Origin: a virus
Reading direction: 5' to 3' (one strand)
Virus record (IMG/VR): IMGVR_UViG_3300020447_000001
Coordinates: 52,383 to 116,382 of that record
DNA: 64,000 bases
The translations under genes were made by a program, and so were the position numbers. The notes under the pieces were generated by a model. It was not told where the DNA came from and did no database searches. It saw only the letters and a list, made by a program, of their open reading frames with translations. Positions 210 through 23,497 of this stretch are shown here, piece after piece (position 1 is the first letter of the stretch; each line of letters begins with the position of its first letter).

Positions 210-2104
210 GTAAACTAACTACTGAGCTAAACGAAGCGCAGGCGTGCCACGAAAGCGCAATTGTTATTGAAACAACTGAGCCAAGAGAAGTGGAGAATGA
301 GATTCGGGAATTGGTGTATAGTCAAAACAAATCGGTAGACGATGCCGACAAATCAGTTTTATTGGCTATTCATGATCCGGTTAAAGGGCTTTGCGATTCT
401 GAGGGAATGCCGTTCAATGGCGGTGCAGGAGCACAAGACCCTGAGTTAGCAAAGCTAGGTATTGTGCCACAAGCACAGGGCGCTGAAGATGCCCTAACCG
501 CAGTCCAGTTCTTTATGGATATAGCACAGGAGCGACTTACCCGGCTAGAGAATGACGAAGCTCAACCTGGGGATAGTTCGCTTCAGATTCTGATGCTGAA
601 GTACTTCGATCGTCAACTAATGCCTAACGGGTCAGACTCAAACGCTGATCCAATATTATTGACGGCAATTGACCATCTATGTCGCATAGGTGCTCAAGTC
701 AACGTATGCGCAATTTTGTTAACTCAACCCGGAGCAAAGCTTCCAGCTGAGTTCATTGAGTACTGTGCAGTTATTGATCACGAGCTTCCTCCGAATGATG
801 TGAGAGAACTCATCATTGAGGATCTTGTTGAGACGTGTTCGTTTGCTTCGGACATATCTAAAGAAGAGATAACTGCAACTATAAAAGTCACGAGCGGCTT
901 GAGTTACTCAGGTACCGAACGAATTGTAGCGAGAAGTCTTACTAAGCATAAGGGTTTGAACCCATCCGCTATGTTGCGGGAGAAAGGAAAACAGTTAGCA
1001 AAGCGAGACCTGGGGTTCTGGTGTGCTGACATGGACCCCTTTGTATTGTGGCCCGTTCCGGATAATGAGTTTAACCAATACCGCGAGGTTATTTGTCTGG
1101 CGGAGGAAACTCATCAGATGAATTCTCAAGTTCCAGACGGTCATGTTAGAGCCCGTGTTCGATATTTAGATGAGGAGATTAAAAAGGAACACTGGCTTGA
1201 TCCAATGCCTCTCGTAGACTTCGAATCGCAATTTCGCCCTGAGCGAGATTATTTCAGTTACAAAAACTGGATTGGGTTTGAAGGCGTTAAAGATTATATG
1301 CGTAGGGGCGCAGGTACGGTGCAGCCAGATCGTTGCCATATGAAGGGCATCTTGTTTGTTGGCGTTCCTGGGGCTGGTAAATCCTTCGGTATTAAGTGTA
1401 CCGCAGGAGAACTAAAAATGCCCGTTACCTCAATTGAATCGGGTAAGTTGTTTAGCATGTGGCAAGGTGAGACTGACAAGAACTTGTCTCGTATGCTGAA
1501 AACTATCGAAGCGATTGGGGGAATGCTCGCTATTGACGAATACCAACGATTCATCAGCGAAAAGAAAGATAGTTCTGGTAAGTCATCTGGTGACGGAGGC
1601 ACCGGCGAGCGAGTATCTGGAGGTATTCTAACTTGGCAGCAAAACCAGAACGGCGTGTTCATTTTTGGATGTGCTAACGATATCAGTTCTATCCCGTCTG
1701 CGTTTACAAGGTCCGGGCGTTTTCAAAGCACCTTTGTTGTCGGTTTTCCTGGTCGTAAGGCTAAGGATAAAGGCTGGGAAGGGTATAGAAAACGTCATTG
1801 TCTTGAGCAACAGGAGCCGCCAAACGACGAAAACTGGACCGTCGGTGAGATTGCAGAATGCTGCAAGATTGCCGAGCAACAGCGCCTTTCCCTTAAAGAC
1901 GCAGAAAAGTACGTCAAACGCGTCTATAAGGGAGATGGTAAAAAGGAGCAAGACGCTTTATTTGAATGGGCAGAAGACGCTGATTGCATGTGCGTAGAAA
2001 CTGGCGAGAAGTTTGTGCATCCGCGCAAGCAGAAAAGAACTAAGTCAGCTAGTTCTAAGCCCACTACTCGTGCACCTCGTCGAGGTGTCAGAAAGGTTGA
2101 TTAA
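206..2104 (+). CDS. Ycf46-like AAA+ ATPase
   Basis: A 632-residue protein. The C-terminal half is an AAA+ module: Walker A GVPGAGKS near residues 386-393, Walker B MLAIDE near 440-445, sensor 1 (CANDIS) near 490 and an arginine-finger-like SGRF near 503. The N-terminal half contains a degenerate P-loop-type domain ending in a KLPAEF...DHELPP segment, as in Ycf46 proteins, which pair an inactive first domain with an active second one. The start overlaps the DUF2997-like stop by ATGA and is preceded by GGGAG. Ycf46 is linked to CO2 use in cyanobacteria, but the phage role is unknown; remodelling a phage or host complex is inferred. The C-terminal 25 residues are very basic. Confidence 0.8.
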   Translation: MSKLTTELNEAQACHESAIVIETTEPREVENEIRELVYSQNKSVDDADKSVLLAIHDPVKGLCDSEGMPFNGGAGAQDPELAKLGIVPQAQGAEDALTAVQFFMDIAQERLTRLENDEAQPGDSSLQILMLKYFDRQLMPNGSDSNADPILLTAIDHLCRIGAQVNVCAILLTQPGAKLPAEFIEYCAVIDHELPPNDVRELIIEDLVETCSFASDISKEEITATIKVTSGLSYSGTERIVARSLTKHKGLNPSAMLREKGKQLAKRDLGFWCADMDPFVLWPVPDNEFNQYREVICLAEETHQMNSQVPDGHVRARVRYLDEEIKKEHWLDPMPLVDFESQFRPERDYFSYKNWIGFEGVKDYMRRGAGTVQPDRCHMKGILFVGVPGAGKSFGIKCTAGELKMPVTSIESGKLFSMWQGETDKNLSRMLKTIEAIGGMLAIDEYQRFISEKKDSSGKSSGDGGTGERVSGGILTWQQNQNGVFIFGCANDISSIPSAFTRSGRFQSTFVVGFPGRKAKDKGWEGYRKRHCLEQQEPPNDENWTVGEIAECCKIAEQQRLSLKDAEKYVKRVYKGDGKKEQDALFEWAEDADCMCVETGEKFVHPRKQKRTKSASSKPTTRAPRRGVRKVD

Positions 2105-2106
2105 GT

Positions 2107-2343
2107 ATGATTTCTAGCGATCCTTTAGTGGGAACGTTGGAAGAGAAAGCAATCGAAAATCCCCACGAGTCGCAAGATGAGTGGGGATTTTTGCATTCTC
2201 CTCCGAAGTCAGTGAAGATTATTTATAAGACCACGGCATACGCAGGAATGATAGTGGGAATTGCTTTAGCGTTTCCGCTCATCGCTGTATCTAGCGCTAA
2301 GAAGTGGTACGACAAAAGTAGAAAGGACAAATACGGTGAGTAG
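2107..2343 (+). CDS. Small single-pass membrane protein
   Basis: A 78-residue protein with one hydrophobic segment at about residues 41-60 (AGMIVGIALAFPLIAV), followed by a basic tail (KKWYDKSRKDK), so the C-terminus is probably cytoplasmic. It starts two bases after the AAA ATPase stop behind AAAGG and overlaps the next start by eight bases, so it belongs to the same transcription unit. No family recognised. It could tether the neighbouring ATPase or its partners to the membrane, which is speculation from context only. Confidence 0.6.
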   Translation: MISSDPLVGTLEEKAIENPHESQDEWGFLHSPPKSVKIIYKTTAYAGMIVGIALAFPLIAVSSAKKWYDKSRKDKYGE

Positions 2344-16175: not shown

Positions 16176-16517
16176 ATGCACGAATATTTCTGCACCCTCG
16201 ACCAGAGCAAGTACGAAATGGGAGCCGTAGACGGAGACACAGTAGATGTCATGGTCGACCTAGGGTTTCATACCTTCCAGAAGCTACGTATACGACTTCT
16301 ATTGGTAGATACCCCAGAAAGAGGCGAAGAAGATTTCCATGAAGCTACACAGGTATTTCGTGACCTTCTGAAGCAAGCGACCGAGGGCGACCCTCGATTG
16401 TACCTACGGACACAGAAACGAGGGAAGTACGGTAGATGGCTAGGTGAGTTTATTAGTTTGGATCGCACCTTAAATATTAACGAGGTGTTAGAAGAACGAT
16501 GGCCATATGTTAAATAG
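16176..16517 (+). CDS. Staphylococcal-nuclease-like protein
   Basis: A 113-residue protein whose ATG lies one base after the dcd stop. Motifs of the SNase (thermonuclease) fold: VDGDTVDVMVD, RIRLLLVDTPERGEE (Arg, Asp and Glu of the calcium-dependent active site) and KRGKYGRWLGEF with the second Arg. It probably hydrolyses DNA or RNA. No signal peptide is seen, so it acts in the cell, perhaps on host DNA. The stop lies within a palindrome shared by other intergenic gaps. Confidence 0.8.
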   Translation: MHEYFCTLDQSKYEMGAVDGDTVDVMVDLGFHTFQKLRIRLLLVDTPERGEEDFHEATQVFRDLLKQATEGDPRLYLRTQKRGKYGRWLGEFISLDRTLNINEVLEERWPYVK

Positions 16518-16527
16518 TACTATTTAA
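16510..16527. repeat. Recurrent intergenic palindrome (perfect copy)
   Basis: TTAAATAGTACTATTTAA is a perfect 18-base palindrome that includes the upstream stop. Close variants occur at 21651, 22476, 29480 and 47897, each between a stop and a ribosome site. Confidence 0.7.
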
Positions 16528-16546
16528 ACCACGTTAGTTAGAAGTA

Positions 16547-16574
16547 AATACCCTGCTTATTGCGGGGTATTTTT
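16547..16574 (+). terminator. Intrinsic terminator
   Basis: AATACCCTGC pairs with GCGGGGTATT (10 bp, one G-U) around TTATT, followed by TTTTTA. Confidence 0.8.
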
Positions 16575-16587
16575 ATAGGAGGATTAA

Positions 16588-16827
16588 ATGGCAGATTTAA
16601 AAGAATATGAGGTGGTGTGGACGCAATGCCCAACGGCATACAATCGCCCCAGAGTATTATTTATTGAAGCACAAAACAAAGAAGACGCAAGAGTTTTAGC
16701 TAAAGACCACATAAAGAGAAGCTTTGGAATTGGGCAGAGTGTTATTGATAAAATTACAGAAACCAAAGAGATGCCTGAGGGAGGTGTTGTTGGTTCAAAG
16801 TATGGGGATCATCATGTAAGGAGATAG
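16588..16827 (+). CDS. Unknown small protein
   Basis: A 79-residue protein behind TAGGAGGATTAA. The N-terminal half reads as beta strands (EYEVVWTQCP...PRVLFIEAQNKEDARVLAKDHI), a pattern often seen in small phage ferredoxin-like folds. Followed at two bases by the zinc-ribbon gene. Confidence 0.55.
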   Translation: MADLKEYEVVWTQCPTAYNRPRVLFIEAQNKEDARVLAKDHIKRSFGIGQSVIDKITETKEMPEGGVVGSKYGDHHVRR

Positions 16828-16829
16828 TT

Positions 16830-17060
16830 ATGGGTAGACCCATTTGCGTCAACTGTAAACAAGAGTATCAATGTAAGAAGAATGAGCAGGTCGTTAACGA
16901 CAAAGCGGCAGGAGTATTCCCCGCTACGTTTTGGATGGGAGATTTATGGGAATGCACTAACTGTAGTCATCAAATTGTCACAGGACGTGGTAAAAGCCTG
17001 GGGTTAACACCCTTTGAAGTGGAAAGCCTAGGAGGCTCTATTGAATTTGGACATTGTTAA
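16830..17060 (+). CDS. Small zinc-ribbon protein
   Basis: A 76-residue protein with CVNC at residues 6-9 and CTNC at about 49-52, giving a four-cysteine zinc-ribbon. It starts behind AAGGAGATAGTT. Zinc ribbons of this size are common in phages as RNA or DNA contact modules, but function is unknown. Confidence 0.6.
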   Translation: MGRPICVNCKQEYQCKKNEQVVNDKAAGVFPATFWMGDLWECTNCSHQIVTGRGKSLGLTPFEVESLGGSIEFGHC

Positions 17061-17081
17061 AACAAAAAAGGAGCTTAAATC

Positions 17082-17348
17082 ATGAGTCACGATCCAACTG
17101 AAACTATTCGTAGAAGTGAAGTTAATAGAATTAATACAGCAGTAGAAAGTTCAGACGAGGATGCTGAACGCGCAAGACTTGAAGCAGAATACGGACAAGT
17201 ATGGGATACGAAACAACTTCAAGAAGATTTTGCGGTAACTAGCTTTGGAGCCCCATACGTGGTTGTAACACGTAAAACAGATAGTGTTGTTGGTTCACTG
17301 GAATTTCAACACAGTCCACGTTATTATTTTAACTTCACGGAAAATTAG
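17082..17348 (+). CDS. Unknown conserved-type phage protein
   Basis: An 88-residue protein behind AAAGGAG. The C-terminal half reads VWDTKQLQEDF, SFGAPYVVVTRK and GSLEFQHSPRYYF, a pattern I associate with a widespread phage protein of unknown role. A metal-binding or enzymatic site is not evident. Confidence 0.55.
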   Translation: MSHDPTETIRRSEVNRINTAVESSDEDAERARLEAEYGQVWDTKQLQEDFAVTSFGAPYVVVTRKTDSVVGSLEFQHSPRYYFNFTEN

Positions 17349-17378
17349 ATAAAGTAACCATATAGAAAGGATTCGAAA

Positions 17379-17741
17379 ATGGTACAGCGATTTGGGCCTA
17401 GTAAACGCAGGACACGGAAACCACCGGAAAACGAATGGCTCCAGTTTATGTCGACGAGTGAAAAAGAGACTCTAAGGCAAAAAGAATGGTTAGATACATC
17501 TCTAGCGGATACTGGTTTACCGGTTCGTGTGGTAAATTGCCTGGAGGAGGCCGGAATTCTTACTGTGGAGGACTTGACGAAACAAACCGCAGATGCGTTA
17601 CTACGTATTACCAATTTTGGCGAGCAAACATTGGGACAATGTACTCGCCTGCTGGCAAAACTTAATCTTCCGCATTGCTTGCAGGAAGAGGCACATGAAG
17701 ACCCCGGTAGGTGTATTAACCTTAAGTCTCCTTCCAGGTGA
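17379..17741 (+). CDS. RNA polymerase alpha-subunit C-terminal-domain-like protein
   Basis: A 120-residue protein. Residues 44-95 align with the bacterial alpha-CTD: PVRVVNCLEEAGILTVEDL, then ADALLRITNFGEQTLGQCTRLLAKLNL. By alignment to E. coli alpha, Arg265, Asn268, Cys269 and Gly296 are kept (here R50, N53, C54, G81), while Lys298 and Ser299 become Gln and Thr. In E. coli these residues contact UP-element DNA and activators. There is no alpha N-terminal domain, so it cannot assemble as a normal alpha subunit. It could bind UP-type DNA or compete for alpha-CTD partners. The N-terminal 35 residues are basic and probably disordered. A strong hairpin overlaps its end. Confidence 0.75.
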   Translation: MVQRFGPSKRRTRKPPENEWLQFMSTSEKETLRQKEWLDTSLADTGLPVRVVNCLEEAGILTVEDLTKQTADALLRITNFGEQTLGQCTRLLAKLNLPHCLQEEAHEDPGRCINLKSPSR

Positions 17742-17753
17742 CCTACCGGGGTC
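17700..17753 (+). promoter_or_regulatory. 13-bp inverted repeat over the alpha-CTD-like stop
   Basis: GACCCCGGTAGGT at 17700 pairs perfectly with ACCTACCGGGGTC at 17741, with a 28-base loop holding the stop codon. It lacks a clean U-run, so it may be an RNA hairpin that stabilises the transcript or slows the polymerase. A conventional terminator follows 27 bases later. Confidence 0.6.
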
Positions 17754-17779
17754 GCTTTAAATCAATTCAATTACTTCGT

Positions 17780-17809
17780 AGCCTGGAGTCGATACTCCGG
17801 GCTTTTTTT
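17780..17809 (+). terminator. Intrinsic terminator
   Basis: AGCCTGGAGT pairs with ACTCCGGGCT (10 bp, one G-U) around CGAT, followed by seven T. Confidence 0.9.
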
Positions 17810-17829
17810 ATGCGCAAAGGAAAAACAAC

Positions 17830-18654
17830 ATGGCTACAATTACTAAAGCAAAAATAGCAAAGAACGGAAAAGTATCGACAGCAAAGAAGGCAACTTCACA
17901 GAGAAAGGATCCTTTTGAAAAGACGCGTATTGTAATACCGGCAATGAAGAAGGCGATCTACAGGGCTACCCTATATGGAAAAACGGATCTGATCGTACAT
18001 GCTTTAGGCACGAAGGCAAAAAAGAAGTTGTTGGACTCAATGGGGCCGAAGAACGCTGCGTCGAAAGTGCGACCTGCTAAAGATCCCGCCGCTGAGTATT
18101 TTGACAGCATGTACATCCTTAACAACAAGTACGACTTTGTGACTGGAGAATACTCCAATCCTCACATGAAAGATCAGCCGTACACGGGCGACATCGACGC
18201 AGATTATGAGACTATTATGCGTCCCATCCGGTACGAAGATTGCACGGCTATTCACGGGGTAGCTTGCGCGGGTATCCGAAAGGGCATGGTTCGTGCGGCA
18301 AAGTCGTGCGGGGCCGTTATGACAGATACCAACTGTAATATACGGGTAGAAAGTCCTTATGGGAACGAGCTTGCCATTAAATTTGAAACTCTTGTTTCTG
18401 GGGAAGTCCCGGTTAAAGTCGGTAAAAACCAAACGGACTTGCGATATCGTCCTCACTATTCAAACTGGAGCATAGATATTGCGATTACTCACCAGTCTGA
18501 GATTATCGGGCCGGAAGAATTGACACAACTCCTTCGAAATGCCGGGGAATTTGTCGGCCTGTCAGAATGGAGAAACGAGAAGGGCGGTCAATACGGCGCG
18601 TACGAAGTAGACCTCAACAGTATTCAATACGAGCTAACTAAAGACAACAAGTAG
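17830..18654 (+). CDS. Unknown protein with GLSxW...YGAYEVD C-terminal motif
   Basis: A 274-residue protein. The first 30 residues are Lys/Thr-rich and probably disordered. The remainder is mixed, ending with NAGEFVGLSEWRNEKGG and QYGAYEVDL. The 177-residue protein at 34202 ends with a very similar arrangement (KAGQYKGLSPWKPGEFGFYDVV), so the two share a domain. A terminator follows the stop. Function unknown; genes with this ending occur in other large phages. Confidence 0.6.
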   Translation: MATITKAKIAKNGKVSTAKKATSQRKDPFEKTRIVIPAMKKAIYRATLYGKTDLIVHALGTKAKKKLLDSMGPKNAASKVRPAKDPAAEYFDSMYILNNKYDFVTGEYSNPHMKDQPYTGDIDADYETIMRPIRYEDCTAIHGVACAGIRKGMVRAAKSCGAVMTDTNCNIRVESPYGNELAIKFETLVSGEVPVKVGKNQTDLRYRPHYSNWSIDIAITHQSEIIGPEELTQLLRNAGEFVGLSEWRNEKGGQYGAYEVDLNSIQYELTKDNK

Positions 18655-18674
18655 ATAATTCTGTTTTCGTTATA

Positions 18675-18705
18675 AGCCCCTAGCCTCCGGGCTAGGGGCT
18701 TTTTT
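18675..18705 (+). terminator. Intrinsic terminator
   Basis: AGCCCCTAGCC pairs with GGCTAGGGGCT (11 bp, loop TCCG), followed by TTTTT. It separates the upstream unit from the gene that precedes the pentamer array. Confidence 0.9.
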
Positions 18706-18718
18706 AAAAGGAGAACTC

Positions 18719-19243
18719 ATGGAAGCTGCAATTAATTTTGAGTATCAAGCGAAGAAGGGTCGTCCGTTATCAGATGCGGTAGCCGAATTGGTGGGTCCTG
18801 AAATTCGATCGCTTAGCCAAGAGACAGGGGAGGAAGTCACCCCTGTCGAGTATTTAAACTGGGTAGCTACTCATCCACATAGTGAAAGTCACGCTTTGTT
18901 TGAGTGGGACGACACAGAAGCAGCGAAGAAATATCGTCTGCACCAAGCACGAAACATTATCAACTCGATTGAGATTAAGATAATTGATCATCGTGGAGAT
19001 GAAACTTTTGTCCCTGCTTGGCTAAACATAAAGGTACAAAACGACGAAGAGGAATCTCCTCGTCAAGTCTACACTTCGTTTGAAAGTGTCGTAAATGATA
19101 ATGAAAAAAGTCAAATAGTGGTGGCACAAGCGAGAAAAGAGTTTATTTCCTGGCGACGACGTTATTTGTTGTTTAGGAATGAGTTACCTCTAGCCGCTAT
19201 TTTTGAGGCTACTGATGAGCTTGAGCTAGAAGAAGAAGGTTGA
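18719..19243 (+). CDS. Unknown 174-residue protein upstream of the pentamer array
   Basis: Starts behind AAAAGGAG. It is acidic with a charged Glu-rich C-terminus (ELELEEEG). No family recognised. It is the only gene between the terminator at 18705 and the one at 20104, so a transcript starting near it would continue through the G-rich array as a very long 3' untranslated region. Whether the protein binds that RNA is unknown. Confidence 0.55.
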   Translation: MEAAINFEYQAKKGRPLSDAVAELVGPEIRSLSQETGEEVTPVEYLNWVATHPHSESHALFEWDDTEAAKKYRLHQARNIINSIEIKIIDHRGDETFVPAWLNIKVQNDEEESPRQVYTSFESVVNDNEKSQIVVAQARKEFISWRRRYLLFRNELPLAAIFEATDELELEEEG

Positions 19244-19253
19244 CACCTTAAAA

Positions 19254-20051
19254 CAAGGCGAGGTACGGCTAGGCTAGGTACGTCATGTTCAGGTGGGGCG
19301 AGGCAGTCGTGGCTGGTTCGGGCGAGGCAGAGGCGTGGACTGGATGGGCAGTCGGGGCGAGGTCGGGCAAGGCAGCGTGGGGTCTGGTAGGGCAGGGCAG
19401 TCATGTCACGGACGGGCGAGGCAAGTCCGGGGCGGGCAAGGCCTGGCAGTCAAGTCAGGGTTTGGTCTGGAACGGCTAGGCTAGGCTGGGTCGGGCGTGG
19501 TTTGGCAGTCAGGGCGAGGCGAGGTCCGGTTTGGTGCGGAATGGTGGGATATGTAATGGCTGGTCGTGGCTGGTTCTGGCAGTCGGGGCTTGGTGGGGTA
19601 CGGTAAGGTTTGGTTGGGTATGGTCTGACTTGGCAGTCTCGGCGAGGTCGGGCTAGGCTAGGCTAGGCTGGGTCGGGCATGGTGAGGCAGTCATGGCAAG
19701 TTCAGACTTGGCTAGGTAGGGCGGGCTCGGGCACGGCAGTCACGGCTAGTTCGGGAGTGACAAGGCGGGTTCAGGTCAGGTACGGCAAGGCAGTCAAGGC
19801 GGGGAAAGGCTGGGCTAGGCTGGGTGGGGTCTGGACAGGCAGTCACGGTGAGGTCTGTTGCGGTGAGTCGGGTACTGGTAAGGACGGGTTCGGCAGGCAT
19901 GGTCGGGCAGCGTAGCTCATGGCGAGGCCAGGCGAGGCCAGGCACGGCAGTCAAGGCGATGTGGGGTGTGGCTTGGCTAGGTAGGGCTTGGACAGTCGAG
20001 GCAGTCTAGTCATGACAAGGCTAGGTGTGGCGGGGTGCAGGTAAGGCAGTC
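19254..20051 (+). ncRNA. G-rich NNGGY pentamer array, 15 blocks joined by AGTC
   Basis: About 800 non-coding bases made of degenerate pentamers NNGGY. Counted by hand, 147 pentamers: 120 have GG at positions 3-4, 143 have G at position 3, and 134 have a pyrimidine at position 5, while positions 1-2 vary freely. Blocks of 8-14 pentamers end in GGC and are separated by AGTC (one AGGC). The GGCAGTC starts are at 19302, 19347, 19396, 19445, 19504, 19578, 19632, 19686, 19735, 19789, 19838, (19892), 19946, 20000 and 20045. Spacing is mostly 49 or 54, averaging about 53. The strand is strongly G-biased, and all six frames are low complexity, so it is not coding. A terminator follows directly, so it is probably transcribed on this strand, perhaps as the 3' end of the preceding gene's mRNA. 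Confidence 0.7.
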
Positions 20052-20064
20052 ACGTCCAGCTATG

Positions 20065-20104
20065 AACACCGCAAGTGCTACCATGCGCTTGCGGTGTTTT
20101 TTTT
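20065..20104 (+). terminator. Intrinsic terminator ending the pentamer array
   Basis: AACACCGCAAG pairs with CTTGCGGTGTT (11 bp) around a 12-base loop, with a run of eight T. It is one of the strongest terminators in the window and lies only 14 bases beyond the last AGTC, so the array is inferred to be transcribed left to right. Confidence 0.9.
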
Positions 20105-20221
20105 CTCTGGTACAAACCCTGGTACTTTTTTAGGGGGGACAAAAAGGGAGTCATATATTAGCCGATTAGACCGCAACTGCGCCGCAGCTAATTACCGGGG
20201 TTTGTACTAGCGCCGCAGCTA

Positions 20222-20400
20222 GGACGCAGCTGAGGACGCACTTGGGACGCACTTGTAATGCACTTGGAACGCACACTCCAGTGCACATTTTCTGCATATT
20301 TTCTGCACATTTTCTGCATACTGGAGTGCACATTTTCTGCACAATGGGCTGAGGACGCACTTGGGACGCACACTGGAGTGCACATTTTCTGCACAATGGG
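20222..20400. repeat. Helically phased GCA array, 11-12 bp period
   Basis: GCA (mostly GCAC, some GCAT or GCAG) occurs at 20226, 20238, 20249, 20260, 20271, 20283, 20294, 20305, 20316, 20328, 20339, 20357, 20368, 20380 and 20391, i.e. every 11 or 12 bp with one 18-bp gap. Units are GGACGCACTTG and TGCACATTTTC. Larger direct repeats lie inside: a 24-bp copy at 20229-20252 and 20348-20371, and a 29-bp copy at 20320-20348 and 20372-20400. The repetition on one helix face is like iterons of a replication origin or a cooperative operator. No gene is present. Confidence 0.8.
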
Positions 20401-20417
20401 GGGTAAAAAACTAAAGT

Positions 20418-20463
20418 TTTACCTCCTACAATAACTTAACGCGTCCCTTATACTACGTATAAG
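20418..20463 (+). repeat. Left 46-bp inverted repeat flanking the glycosyltransferase
   Basis: This segment is the exact reverse complement of 21371-21416, by base-by-base comparison. It contains TATACT at 20449 and the palindrome CTTATACTACGTATAAG. The glycosyltransferase ribosome site (GAAAGG) follows immediately. Confidence 0.85.
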
Positions 20464-20473
20464 AAAGGCGAGC

Positions 20474-21232
20474 ATGATTAAACGAATTCCACTGGGGCTG
20501 CAAGACATACTGACCCGAATCGAAGATCCGTCGGACGCATTCACATTTAGTCGTTGGGGTGATGGCGAATGGCAAGCGATTGCAGGGGCGAGAAGCCGTA
20601 GTAATCGAGACGGGCACAGGTATTTCCCAGAAATGGGCAAAGAACTACGCCAAATCTTGCTGGAACAGCCAGATTACGTTATGGGCATGCAGGGATTAGC
20701 CCTGCGGGTCATGGGAGACAAAATTAACACGCAAGTTAAAGCCGCAGGCCTAGATTACGTCGATTGGGTAGATTCGGATGTATTTCACCAAGCTGCTTTA
20801 AACGGACATCTCTATTGCGTTGTAAACGCAGTAAATACACGAAAGGTGTTGCTGGTTGGTCCACCCCATCTAAGGAAGGTCAATACAAATACAAATTTAC
20901 CCCTACATTATTGGGAATTTGTAGAGGTCTCGCCAAAGAATGCTTATCTGGATATAGAGCGCGTAATAGGGGATATAGAGCAAATTTTAGCAGAATACAA
21001 AGGAAAAGAGCCTTTGTGTATCTCAGTAAGTGCCAGCTTACCTGCGGGTATTATTCTTCACAGAATATACCCATTAACCAAGGGGCGACACACTGTAATA
21101 GACTTCGGATGTTTGTGGGATCCGTTAGCTGGTGTAATTACAGCGGGATATCACAAGGAGCAAGGTATTAAAGCTATTGTGGAAGCTAGAAGTACAGAAC
21201 CTTACATCACGGAAGTAAGTGAAGAACAGTAA
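20474..21232 (+). CDS. GT-D-fold glycosyltransferase-like protein
   Basis: A 252-residue protein. FTFSRWGDGEW near residues 25-35 matches the RxGDGE motif of GT-D (DUF1792-type) glycosyltransferases, where the acidic residues bind the metal-nucleotide sugar. A later VSASLPAG and VIDFGCLWDP agree with the fold's strands. No membrane segment is seen. It would add a sugar to a glycan, protein or other acceptor; the acceptor is unknown. The gene is bracketed by 46-bp inverted repeats (20418-20463 and 21371-21416) with a weak terminator inside the right one, so it may be a movable or invertible cassette. Base composition is similar to its neighbours. Confidence 0.7.
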   Translation: MIKRIPLGLQDILTRIEDPSDAFTFSRWGDGEWQAIAGARSRSNRDGHRYFPEMGKELRQILLEQPDYVMGMQGLALRVMGDKINTQVKAAGLDYVDWVDSDVFHQAALNGHLYCVVNAVNTRKVLLVGPPHLRKVNTNTNLPLHYWEFVEVSPKNAYLDIERVIGDIEQILAEYKGKEPLCISVSASLPAGIILHRIYPLTKGRHTVIDFGCLWDPLAGVITAGYHKEQGIKAIVEARSTEPYITEVSEEQ

Positions 21233-21345
21233 CACCTATTTACTATAGTAACATAGCATATGTTACTGTGCAATAAGAAGGTAATTTACTACGTAAATCC
21301 ATATGGAATTGGCGAAGATTAACAGATAAGTAATTTACTTAAGAT
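21233..21345. other. Gene-free region with small palindromes
   Basis: Contains AGTAACAT...ATGTTACT (8-bp arms) at about 21246, and GTAATTTAC at about 21282 and 21330. They could be operator half-sites or RNA hairpins; function unknown. Confidence 0.35.
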
Positions 21346-21370
21346 ACAGGGAGAAAAAAGACTCCCTGTT
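21346..21370 (+). terminator. Weak intrinsic terminator
   Basis: ACAGGGAG pairs with CTCCCTGT (8 bp, A-rich loop) followed by TCTT. It lies just before the right inverted repeat. Confidence 0.5.
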
Positions 21371-21416
21371 CTTATACGTAGTATAAGGGACGCGTTAAGT
21401 TATTGTAGGAGGTAAA
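21371..21416 (-). repeat. Right 46-bp inverted repeat
   Basis: The exact reverse complement of 20418-20463. Together they bracket 907 bp holding only the glycosyltransferase. It lies 31 bases upstream of the next start codon. Confidence 0.85.
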
Positions 21417-21447
21417 GTTTTAAGTTACAACCACGAAGGAGTTAGTA

Positions 21448-21657
21448 ATGACCATGTATGGTTCTCTTACAAAGAGACAAATGGCTCTTCTTACCCCCCA
21501 TGCTGGCATCTTCGATTGGGATGACCTTCCCAAGGAGACGCAGCAGCAGGTCTTGGCAATCAGGGATCACGAGACAACGTGGTCTGACGCACAGCGCTAT
21601 CTGGGCGATCTCTACAATCCACATTTCGTAGATGCTGCCGCTAGATTGCTTAAATAG
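21448..21657 (+). CDS. Unknown small protein
   Basis: A 69-residue protein behind GAAGGAG. Its C-terminal half is helical (WSDAQRYLGDLYNPHFVDAAARLLK). No family recognised. The stop lies in a copy of the intergenic palindrome. Confidence 0.5.
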   Translation: MTMYGSLTKRQMALLTPHAGIFDWDDLPKETQQQVLAIRDHETTWSDAQRYLGDLYNPHFVDAAARLLK

Positions 21658-22997: not shown

Positions 22998-23056
22998 CTT
23001 GCTAGTTAGTAGAAGTGATGAACCATCTTATTTCACAATATCTAGGAGAGCGGACG

Positions 23057-23497
23057 ATGAAGGTTTTACTTATGGTTTTGGTATTGTTCGTCGCAAGTGT
23101 AGCCCAAGCTGGGGATTGGAGCGGACAAGAATTAACGTTGATGGAAAACGTTAACATTCAACAGATGTATGAAGTACATACCAAGCATCGAAGTCGTAAC
23201 GGACTGCGACCACAGATTCTTAATGGTGAATTATGTCGTGCGGCTCAGGAGTGGTCAGAATATATGGCCGAGCATCACTATTTTAAGCACTCACATTATC
23301 CCGTCGCCGAAAATATTGCGGTGGGGCAGAAATCAGCAAATTCTGCCATGAATGCGTGGATACACAGCAGAGGGCACAATGCGAATTTGTTAGGGGGACA
23401 TAATCAGGTCGGGTTCGGGATTGCTGAGTCTGCGGACGGAACTAGGTACTGGACATCATGTCATGGTTCAGGCTTTAAAGTGCACAAAGGAGGATGA
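23057..23497 (+). CDS. Secreted CAP-domain (SCP/YkwD-like) protein
   Basis: A 146-residue protein. The ATG at 23057 begins a classical signal peptide (KVLLMVLVLFVASVAQAG), with likely cleavage after residue 19. The mature part contains the CAP domain: HTKHRSRNGLRP, LCRAAQEWSEYMAEHHYFKHS, ENIAVG, AWIHSRGHNANLL and a C-terminal SCHGSGFK. His and Glu residues of the CAP cavity are present. Such proteins are exported by bacteria; carriage by a phage is unusual. The role may lie outside the cell or at the wall. Confidence 0.8.
   Translation: MKVLLMVLVLFVASVAQAGDWSGQELTLMENVNIQQMYEVHTKHRSRNGLRPQILNGELCRAAQEWSEYMAEHHYFKHSHYPVAENIAVGQKSANSAMNAWIHSRGHNANLLGGHNQVGFGIAESADGTRYWTSCHGSGFKVHKGG

What the first reader, a model, noticed from the sequence alone, without database searches (positions are those of the whole stretch)
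19254..20051. G-rich NNGGY pentamer array in 15 AGTC-separated blocks: a possible new phage RNA or R-loop element
Seen: about 147 pentamers in which position 3 is G in 143, positions 3-4 are GG in 120 and position 5 is a pyrimidine in 134, while positions 1-2 are free. Blocks are joined by AGTC and repeat at 49 or 54 bases, about 53 on average. Free positions 1-2 mean this is not a recently amplified tandem repeat; the GG phase itself seems selected. Inferences: (a) an RNA sponge or scaffold for a ring-shaped RNA-binding protein, comparable to TRAP, which reads 11 NAG-type triplets at 5-base spacing over about 53 bases; (b) a G-rich non-template strand forming R-loops or two-tier G-quadruplexes, as in immunoglobulin switch regions, for replication or recombination start; (c) a DNA feature with half-turn GG phasing. 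I know no described phage element with this design.
Basis: partly seen in the sequence, partly recalled or inferred. Interest (0 to 1): 0.95.

Follow-up and report, generated by a model that had tools for sequence, protein, structure and literature searches.

The report
Phage VIPR guide-RNA array
The odd five-letter repeat is a string of about 14 RNA guides, with the gene for the CRISPR-like protein that should carry them lying next door in the same phage; this kind of phage weapon (VIPR) was first described in a 2026 preprint, so this is a new and well-organised example of it, not a new kind of element.

Summary
In-phase GGY pairs number 70, against a maximum of 14 in 500 shuffles. The array is not a TRAP sponge, an R-loop element or a DNA-phasing signal. 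It is a guide-RNA array of a VIPR system (preprint PMC13142463), in which a RAMP-fold protein, Vipr, carries RNAs made of GGY/NN repeats whose free NN pairs read DNA. The neighbouring ORF 17830-18654 is a Vipr: it matches the solved SUSP1 Vipr (PDB 36pp, E 2e-6), and its predicted fold matches only Cas7-type proteins in the top 50. ORF 18719-19243 is the accessory gene (vap); its family occurs in 71 of 140 vipr loci. Such arrays occur in more than 100 uncultured viruses, on the same strand as vipr in 139 of 141 cases. A recurrent detail not found in the preprint's main text is a 4-nt punctuation, GGC|AGTC or GGC|AGGC, delimiting guides of about 8-13 units. The window's targets remain unproven; one guide matches a phage portal gene at 19 of 20 bases.

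The parts
17830..18654 (+). vipr gene: RAMP (Cas7-like) guide-RNA-binding protein, 274 aa, phrog_4652 family
   Evidence: phmmer vs PDB 36pp_D 'SUSP1 Vipr protein' E=2.1e-6, family profile E=6e-46; tblastn to phiSUSP1 ALH47069.1 E=4e-5 and Gordonia phages E~1e-12; AF2 pLDDT 82, pTM 0.76; Foldseek top 50 are Csm3/Cmr4/Cas7/gRAMP entries; conserved G-loop residues W213 G239 G243 R248 G256
18682..18707 (+). intrinsic terminator-like hairpin with T-run between vipr and vap
   Evidence: AGCCTCCGGGCTAGGGGCT + TTTTT; read
18719..19243 (+). vap-like accessory gene, 174 aa, phrog_15946 family; fold confidently predicted but no known match
   Evidence: family present in 76 loci, 71 of them with vipr, mostly adjacent or overlapping; AF2 pLDDT 93.6; no PDB match with E<0.001; not homologous by search to SUSP1 vap1
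19254..20051 (+). vrRNA (guide) array: 147 NNGGY pentamers in about 14 blocks of mostly 9-11 units (single blocks of 14 and 21)
   Evidence: same design in >100 viral contigs
19302..19308 (+). first of 14 GGC-AGTC junctions (AGTC at 19305, 19350, 19399, 19448, 19507, 19581, 19635, 19689, 19738, 19792, 19841, 19949, 20003, 20048)
   Evidence: 4-nt junctions preceded by GGC (not GGT) in 153/156 and 445/464 cases in related arrays, against 77-79% C in the body
19511..19580 (+). block 6, 14 units (longest clean block)
19457..19506 (+). block 5, guide AG TT CT AC TA TA TG CG GT TT; best candidate target is a portal gene in L205 (19/20, skip base on the codon wobble position)
20064..20099 (+). intrinsic terminator ending the array transcript
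   Evidence: 15-pair stem, -30 kcal/mol for the 59-nt fold, z -8.8, followed by a T-run

Best explanation
The array is the guide-RNA (vrRNA) array of a VIPR system of a large uncultured phage. The transcript is read rightwards and ends at 20064-20099. Vipr (17830-18654), a Cas7-type RAMP protein, would bind it one subunit per pentamer, holding each conserved GGY and exposing each NN pair. By the published rule the NN pairs of one block together read double-stranded DNA as NNxNNxNN... with one skipped base, and binding represses transcription of competing phages or satellites. The GGC-AGTC junctions break the 5-nt register by one base every 8-13 units and most likely mark where one guide ends and the next begins. 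The accessory protein 18719-19243 probably helps at the DNA target. Shown here: array statistics, Vipr homology and fold, conserved linkage, the vap family, the junction rule. Inferred from the preprint: RNP formation, DNA targeting, repression. Inferred by me: one subunit per pentamer, the junction role and the Vap role.
For: Loci picked only by the DNA pattern hold a Vipr homolog in 89 of 120 cases. Overall 141 Vipr homologs were found; the nearest array is on the same strand in 139 and within 1.5 kb in all. The window ORF alone matches the solved SUSP1 Vipr. The model matches only Cas7-family structures in the top 50. SUSP1, the published type system, shows the same GGY/NN arrays beside vipr when read here. 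The relative L150 keeps GGY, AGTC and the accessory gene but has different NN content. No self-target above controls in the phage's own 116 kb, as expected for a weapon against others. In cross-locus tests only the 1-nt skip gave an excess of exact 8-dinucleotide matches: 11 pairs, against 2-8 in shuffles; a guide of L155 hits the vipr genes of L034 and L088 in wobble phase.
Against: No transcript or RNP was measured. No secure target was found: guide 8 had no exact hit, the other scans gave mostly chance-level hits, and no second guide hits the B5 candidate phage. Several units are degenerate (27 of 147 lack GG) and two blocks carry one-base insertions, so some guides may be decayed. The excess for skip 1 is modest. 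vipr and the array are separated by a terminator-like hairpin and the vap gene.
Confidence: 0.93

Rival explanations
1. RNA sponge or scaffold that titrates a ring-shaped RNA-binding protein (TRAP-like); the NN positions carry no information.
Against: The linked protein is a RAMP of Cas7 type, not TRAP. Block length varies from 8 to 13 units across relatives, unlike a fixed ring. The published homolog uses the NN positions for DNA recognition.
Confidence: 0.02
2. R-loop or G-quadruplex element for replication or recombination start.
For: Strong G-skew on the non-template strand; some relatives lie beside RusA-like ORFs (read by eye).
Against: Strict GGY phase, GGC-AGTC punctuation and constant pairing with vipr are not needed for an R-loop; cultured homologs express vrRNAs.
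Confidence: 0.02
3. VIPR array, but the whole run is one long precursor whose functional guides overlap (the preprint's 'staggered arrays with overlapping vrRNAs') rather than units delimited at AGTC.
For: The preprint names such arrays; junctions shift the register by one base, which could be what 'staggered' means; one 108-nt block lacks a junction.
Against: Junctions are nearly always preceded by GGC and recur at 8-13 units, as expected of boundaries. The supplement that defines 'staggered' could not be read here.
Confidence: 0.35
4. Decayed VIPR remnant: array and Vipr no longer function.
For: 27 of 147 units are without GG; Vipr's G-loop departs from consensus (GLSEWRNEKGGQYGAY); two one-base insertions in blocks.
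Against: All ORFs are intact, a strong terminator is kept, the invariant Vipr residues are kept, and the relative L150 has similarly degenerate units.
Confidence: 0.1

Closest known systems
VIPR system of Escherichia phage phiSUSP1 (type II; preprint PMC13142463; PDB 36pp)
   Same: RAMP protein of the same family, adjacent accessory gene, intergenic GGY/NN arrays on the coding strand.
   Different: SUSP1 has four separate vrRNAs of about 100 nt, each with a structured 3' tail. The window has about 14 guides fused head to tail with 4-nt junctions and one terminal hairpin. Vap is another family. The Viprs fall in different clades.
VIPR loci of Gordonia phages Ecliptus (gp19/gp20) and Pipp (gp42/gp44), annotated hypothetical
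   Same: Closest cultured Viprs (E ~1e-12), same accessory family, contiguous array with GGC-AGGC junctions.
   Different: Fewer guides, AGGC instead of AGTC, actinobacterial hosts.
Class 1 CRISPR-Cas (Cas7/Csm3/Cmr4 backbones)
   Same: Same RAMP fold; multi-guide transcript.
   Different: No CRISPR repeats and no Cas family among the neighbouring proteins tested; 5-nt guide units with non-contiguous reading.
TRAP / trp leader RNA
   Same: RNA with a short motif at 5-nt spacing, about 53 nt per block.
   Different: NAG triplets and an 11-mer ring of unrelated fold; no TRAP homolog among the neighbours tested.

Membership tests
VIPR system | Vipr: small RAMP-fold protein with glycine-rich loop, homologous to SUSP1 Vipr | tested here: met
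VIPR system | vrRNA region of tandem GGY/NN pentamers, 9-16 per guide | tested here: met
   blocks mostly 9-11 units, one of 14, one of 21 that probably lost a junction; significance
VIPR system | GGY conserved, NN hypervariable between relatives | tested here: met
   all 16 NN used; relative L150 shares GGY, AGTC and accessory gene but shows different NN
VIPR system | Minimal locus: vipr plus a vap gene with adjacent intergenic array, in a phage | tested here: met
   Vap is phrog_15946, not SUSP1 vap1
VIPR system | NN pairs match a DNA target under the 1-nt skip rule | tested here: inconclusive
   family-wide weak excess for skip 1 only; window guide B5 19/20 in a portal gene in wobble phase, about 0.2 such hits expected by chance
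VIPR system | vrRNAs expressed and co-purifying with Vipr; DNA binding and repression | not testable with these tools
   needs experiment
VIPR type II (SUSP1 / P. fulva architecture) | Separate vrRNAs each with a structured 3' tail | tested here: not met
   blocks follow one another with only 4 nt between them; Vipr in a separate clade
VIPR with hammerhead-interspersed array | Hammerhead ribozymes between guides | tested here: not met
   no Rfam match in 16500-21500 at gathering threshold
VIPR 'staggered array' subtype | Overlapping vrRNAs in a staggered array | not testable with these tools
   definition is in supplementary fig. S18, which could not be read
CRISPR array | Identical direct repeats separated by unique spacers, with cas genes | tested here: not met
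   TRF finds no such repeats in the array; the proteins tested beside the array include no Cas family
TRAP-binding RNA | NAG triplets and a TRAP protein | tested here: not met
   motif is GGY; partner is RAMP

The most novel reading that the evidence does not exclude
The 4-nt junction GGC|AG(T/G)C is a minimal punctuation signal that defines guide ends in fused VIPR arrays. It would be a four-letter counterpart of the CRISPR repeat, recognised by Vipr or by the phrog_15946 accessory protein, so that many guides of 8-13 units are cut or loaded from one transcript. This would set the large phrog_15946 clade apart mechanistically from the tailed type II vrRNAs.
Probability: 0.4. Interest if true: 0.7.

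Novelty: new member of a known kind. Interest (0 to 1): 0.55.

Why it matters
VIPR is a newly reported RNA-guided DNA-recognition system that reads targets discontinuously and is proposed to precede CRISPR. This window shows a multi-guide version in a large uncultured virus, and the survey around it shows that fused, punctuated arrays with one dominant accessory gene are common in viral metagenomes. That gives a ready set of over 100 loci for working out how guides are delimited, how arrays gain new guides, and what phages fight over.

Tried and rejected
Coding explanation: 5-nt period; only chance ORFs of up to 80 aa cross the array. Tandem amplification: TRF finds only two tiny local repeats inside it. 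Rfam: no family at gathering threshold. DNA similarity in cultured phages: none. Self-targeting: not above shuffled guides. Targets: exact guide 8 none; guide 8 core 3 hits of 16-18/20 out of coding phase or with stop codons; guide 7 core 18 hits, best 19/20 (L211/L217, one sequence) inside a terminase-like ORF but not in wobble phase, about one expected by chance; guide 6 core 4 hits at chance level; guide 5 in bacterial genomes 4 hits, none in wobble phase. Guide convergence on the B5 candidate phage: none. Fold match for Vap: nothing better than E 0.25. Literature search by motif spelling found nothing; searching by 'pentanucleotide repeats' found the VIPR preprint, and no second paper names the system.

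Full report
Observation. GGY pairs at lag 5 number 70, against a mean of 7.0 and a maximum of 14 in 500 dinucleotide-preserving shuffles. The same score elsewhere in the window never exceeds 3. GGCAGTC occurs 14 times (shuffles 0.5, maximum 3). The record is an IMG/VR virus contig of 116,382 bases of which the window is the last 64 kb, and this is its only such array. An intrinsic terminator closes the region at 20064-20099.

The array is one of many. A second scan for the AGTC junction gave 70 stretches. In the loci read by eye the arrays lie between genes, G-rich on the coding strand.

The partner protein. Array-selected loci share one protein family: 89 of 120 hold a homolog of window ORF 17830-18654. 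With the second set there are 141 homologs in 140 loci; the nearest array is on the same strand in 139 and within 1.5 kb in all 141. The family has invariant W213, G239, G243, R248 and G256, a glycine-rich loop. The AlphaFold model (pLDDT 81.8, pTM 0.76) matches Csm3, Cmr4, type VII Cas7 and gRAMP in all top 50 PDB hits, best E 1.8e-5.

Identification. A literature search found a preprint on VIPR systems (PMC13142463; read): a phage RAMP protein, Vipr, with vrRNAs of 9-16 YNNGG repeats, in which NN pairs read dsDNA with one skipped base, repressing competing phages and satellites; seven types, six accessory (vap) genes, several array architectures. Membership was then tested here independently. 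The window ORF alone matches PDB 36pp 'SUSP1 Vipr protein' (E 2.1e-6), its family profile matches it at E 6e-46, and tblastn finds the phiSUSP1 gene and Gordonia phage genes. The SUSP1 locus read here shows one array upstream and three downstream of vipr-vap1, as published.

The accessory gene. ORF 18719-19243 (phrog_15946) lies between vipr and the array. Its family is in 76 loci, 71 with vipr, usually adjacent or overlapping, and is the most frequent vipr neighbour. A Vipr tree puts the window in a clade of 85 (support 0.99) in which 69 loci carry this gene, apart from SUSP1. Its fold is predicted with high confidence (pLDDT 93.6) but has no significant PDB match. Its role is unknown; by analogy with published vaps I expect a DNA-target helper.

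Array grammar. Between in-phase runs the junction is typically 4 nt, so the register shifts by one base: 930 cases of 4 nt against 44 of 1 nt and 79 of 6 nt (the 4-nt class includes sliding ambiguities, which filters out). In the unbiased set (loci) AGGC leads, 76 of 156; in the AGTC-selected set AGTC and AGGC lead. The unit before the junction ends in GGC in 153/156 and 445/464 cases, against 77-79% C in array bodies, and blocks cluster at 8-13 units. In the window 14 of the 19 AGTC follow GGC and none follows GGT, while body units end in T about half the time. The relative L150, with the closest accessory gene, keeps GGY and AGTC but not the NN content. I infer that the junction delimits guides. 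The preprint's main text mentions 'staggered arrays with overlapping vrRNAs', which may be the same thing; its supplement could not be read.

Targets. The phage's own genome has no site above shuffled controls. Across the fetched loci only the 1-nt skip shows an excess of exact 8-dinucleotide matches, 11 pairs against 2-8 in eight shuffles, including a guide of L155 that hits the vipr genes of L034 and L088 in codon-wobble phase. This is weak but agrees with the published rule and with the published remark that some vrRNAs target other VIPRs. For the window, guide B5 (AG TT CT AC TA TA TG CG GT TT) matches 19 of 20 bases in a T7-like portal gene of another virus, skip bases on the wobble position. 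Four 8-dinucleotide core hits with about a 5% chance each of three or more flank matches give about 0.2 expected by chance, before counting phase. No other guide hits that virus. It is a lead, not a proof.

Verdict. Real, highly structured, and explained: a VIPR guide array with its Vipr and accessory gene. Membership rests on homology, fold and anatomy; function is inferred from the preprint. The part that may still be new is the 4-nt guide punctuation and its link to the phrog_15946 clade.

Noticed in passing
window 20150-20400: Just beyond the terminator there are 11-base-phased repeats (GGACGCACTTG and TGCACATTTTC variants) with inverted ACTCCAGT/ACTGGAGT; possibly a regulatory or replication-start region.
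   Followed up: no
window 17379-17741: Phage ORF with an RNA polymerase alpha C-terminal domain (PF03118, E 1e-13), just upstream of vipr.
   Followed up: no
window 23015-23497: CAP/SCP-domain protein (PF00188, E 1e-13) in a phage genome.
   Followed up: no
L155 guide at about 804 (+); L034 and L088 vipr genes: A VIPR guide whose first 8 dinucleotides match the vipr gene of two other viruses in codon-wobble phase: VIPR aimed at VIPR.
   Followed up: partly
L131 (Pseudomonas phage LESphi2, 3310-3640) and Gordonia phages L129/L130: Cultured, deposited phages carry unannotated VIPR arrays beside 'hypothetical protein' genes.
   Followed up: partly
L167 blocks 319-714 and 1510-2239 (minus strand): Two guide blocks in different arrays of one virus are near-copies with a few NN changes, suggesting guide duplication and drift.
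   Followed up: no
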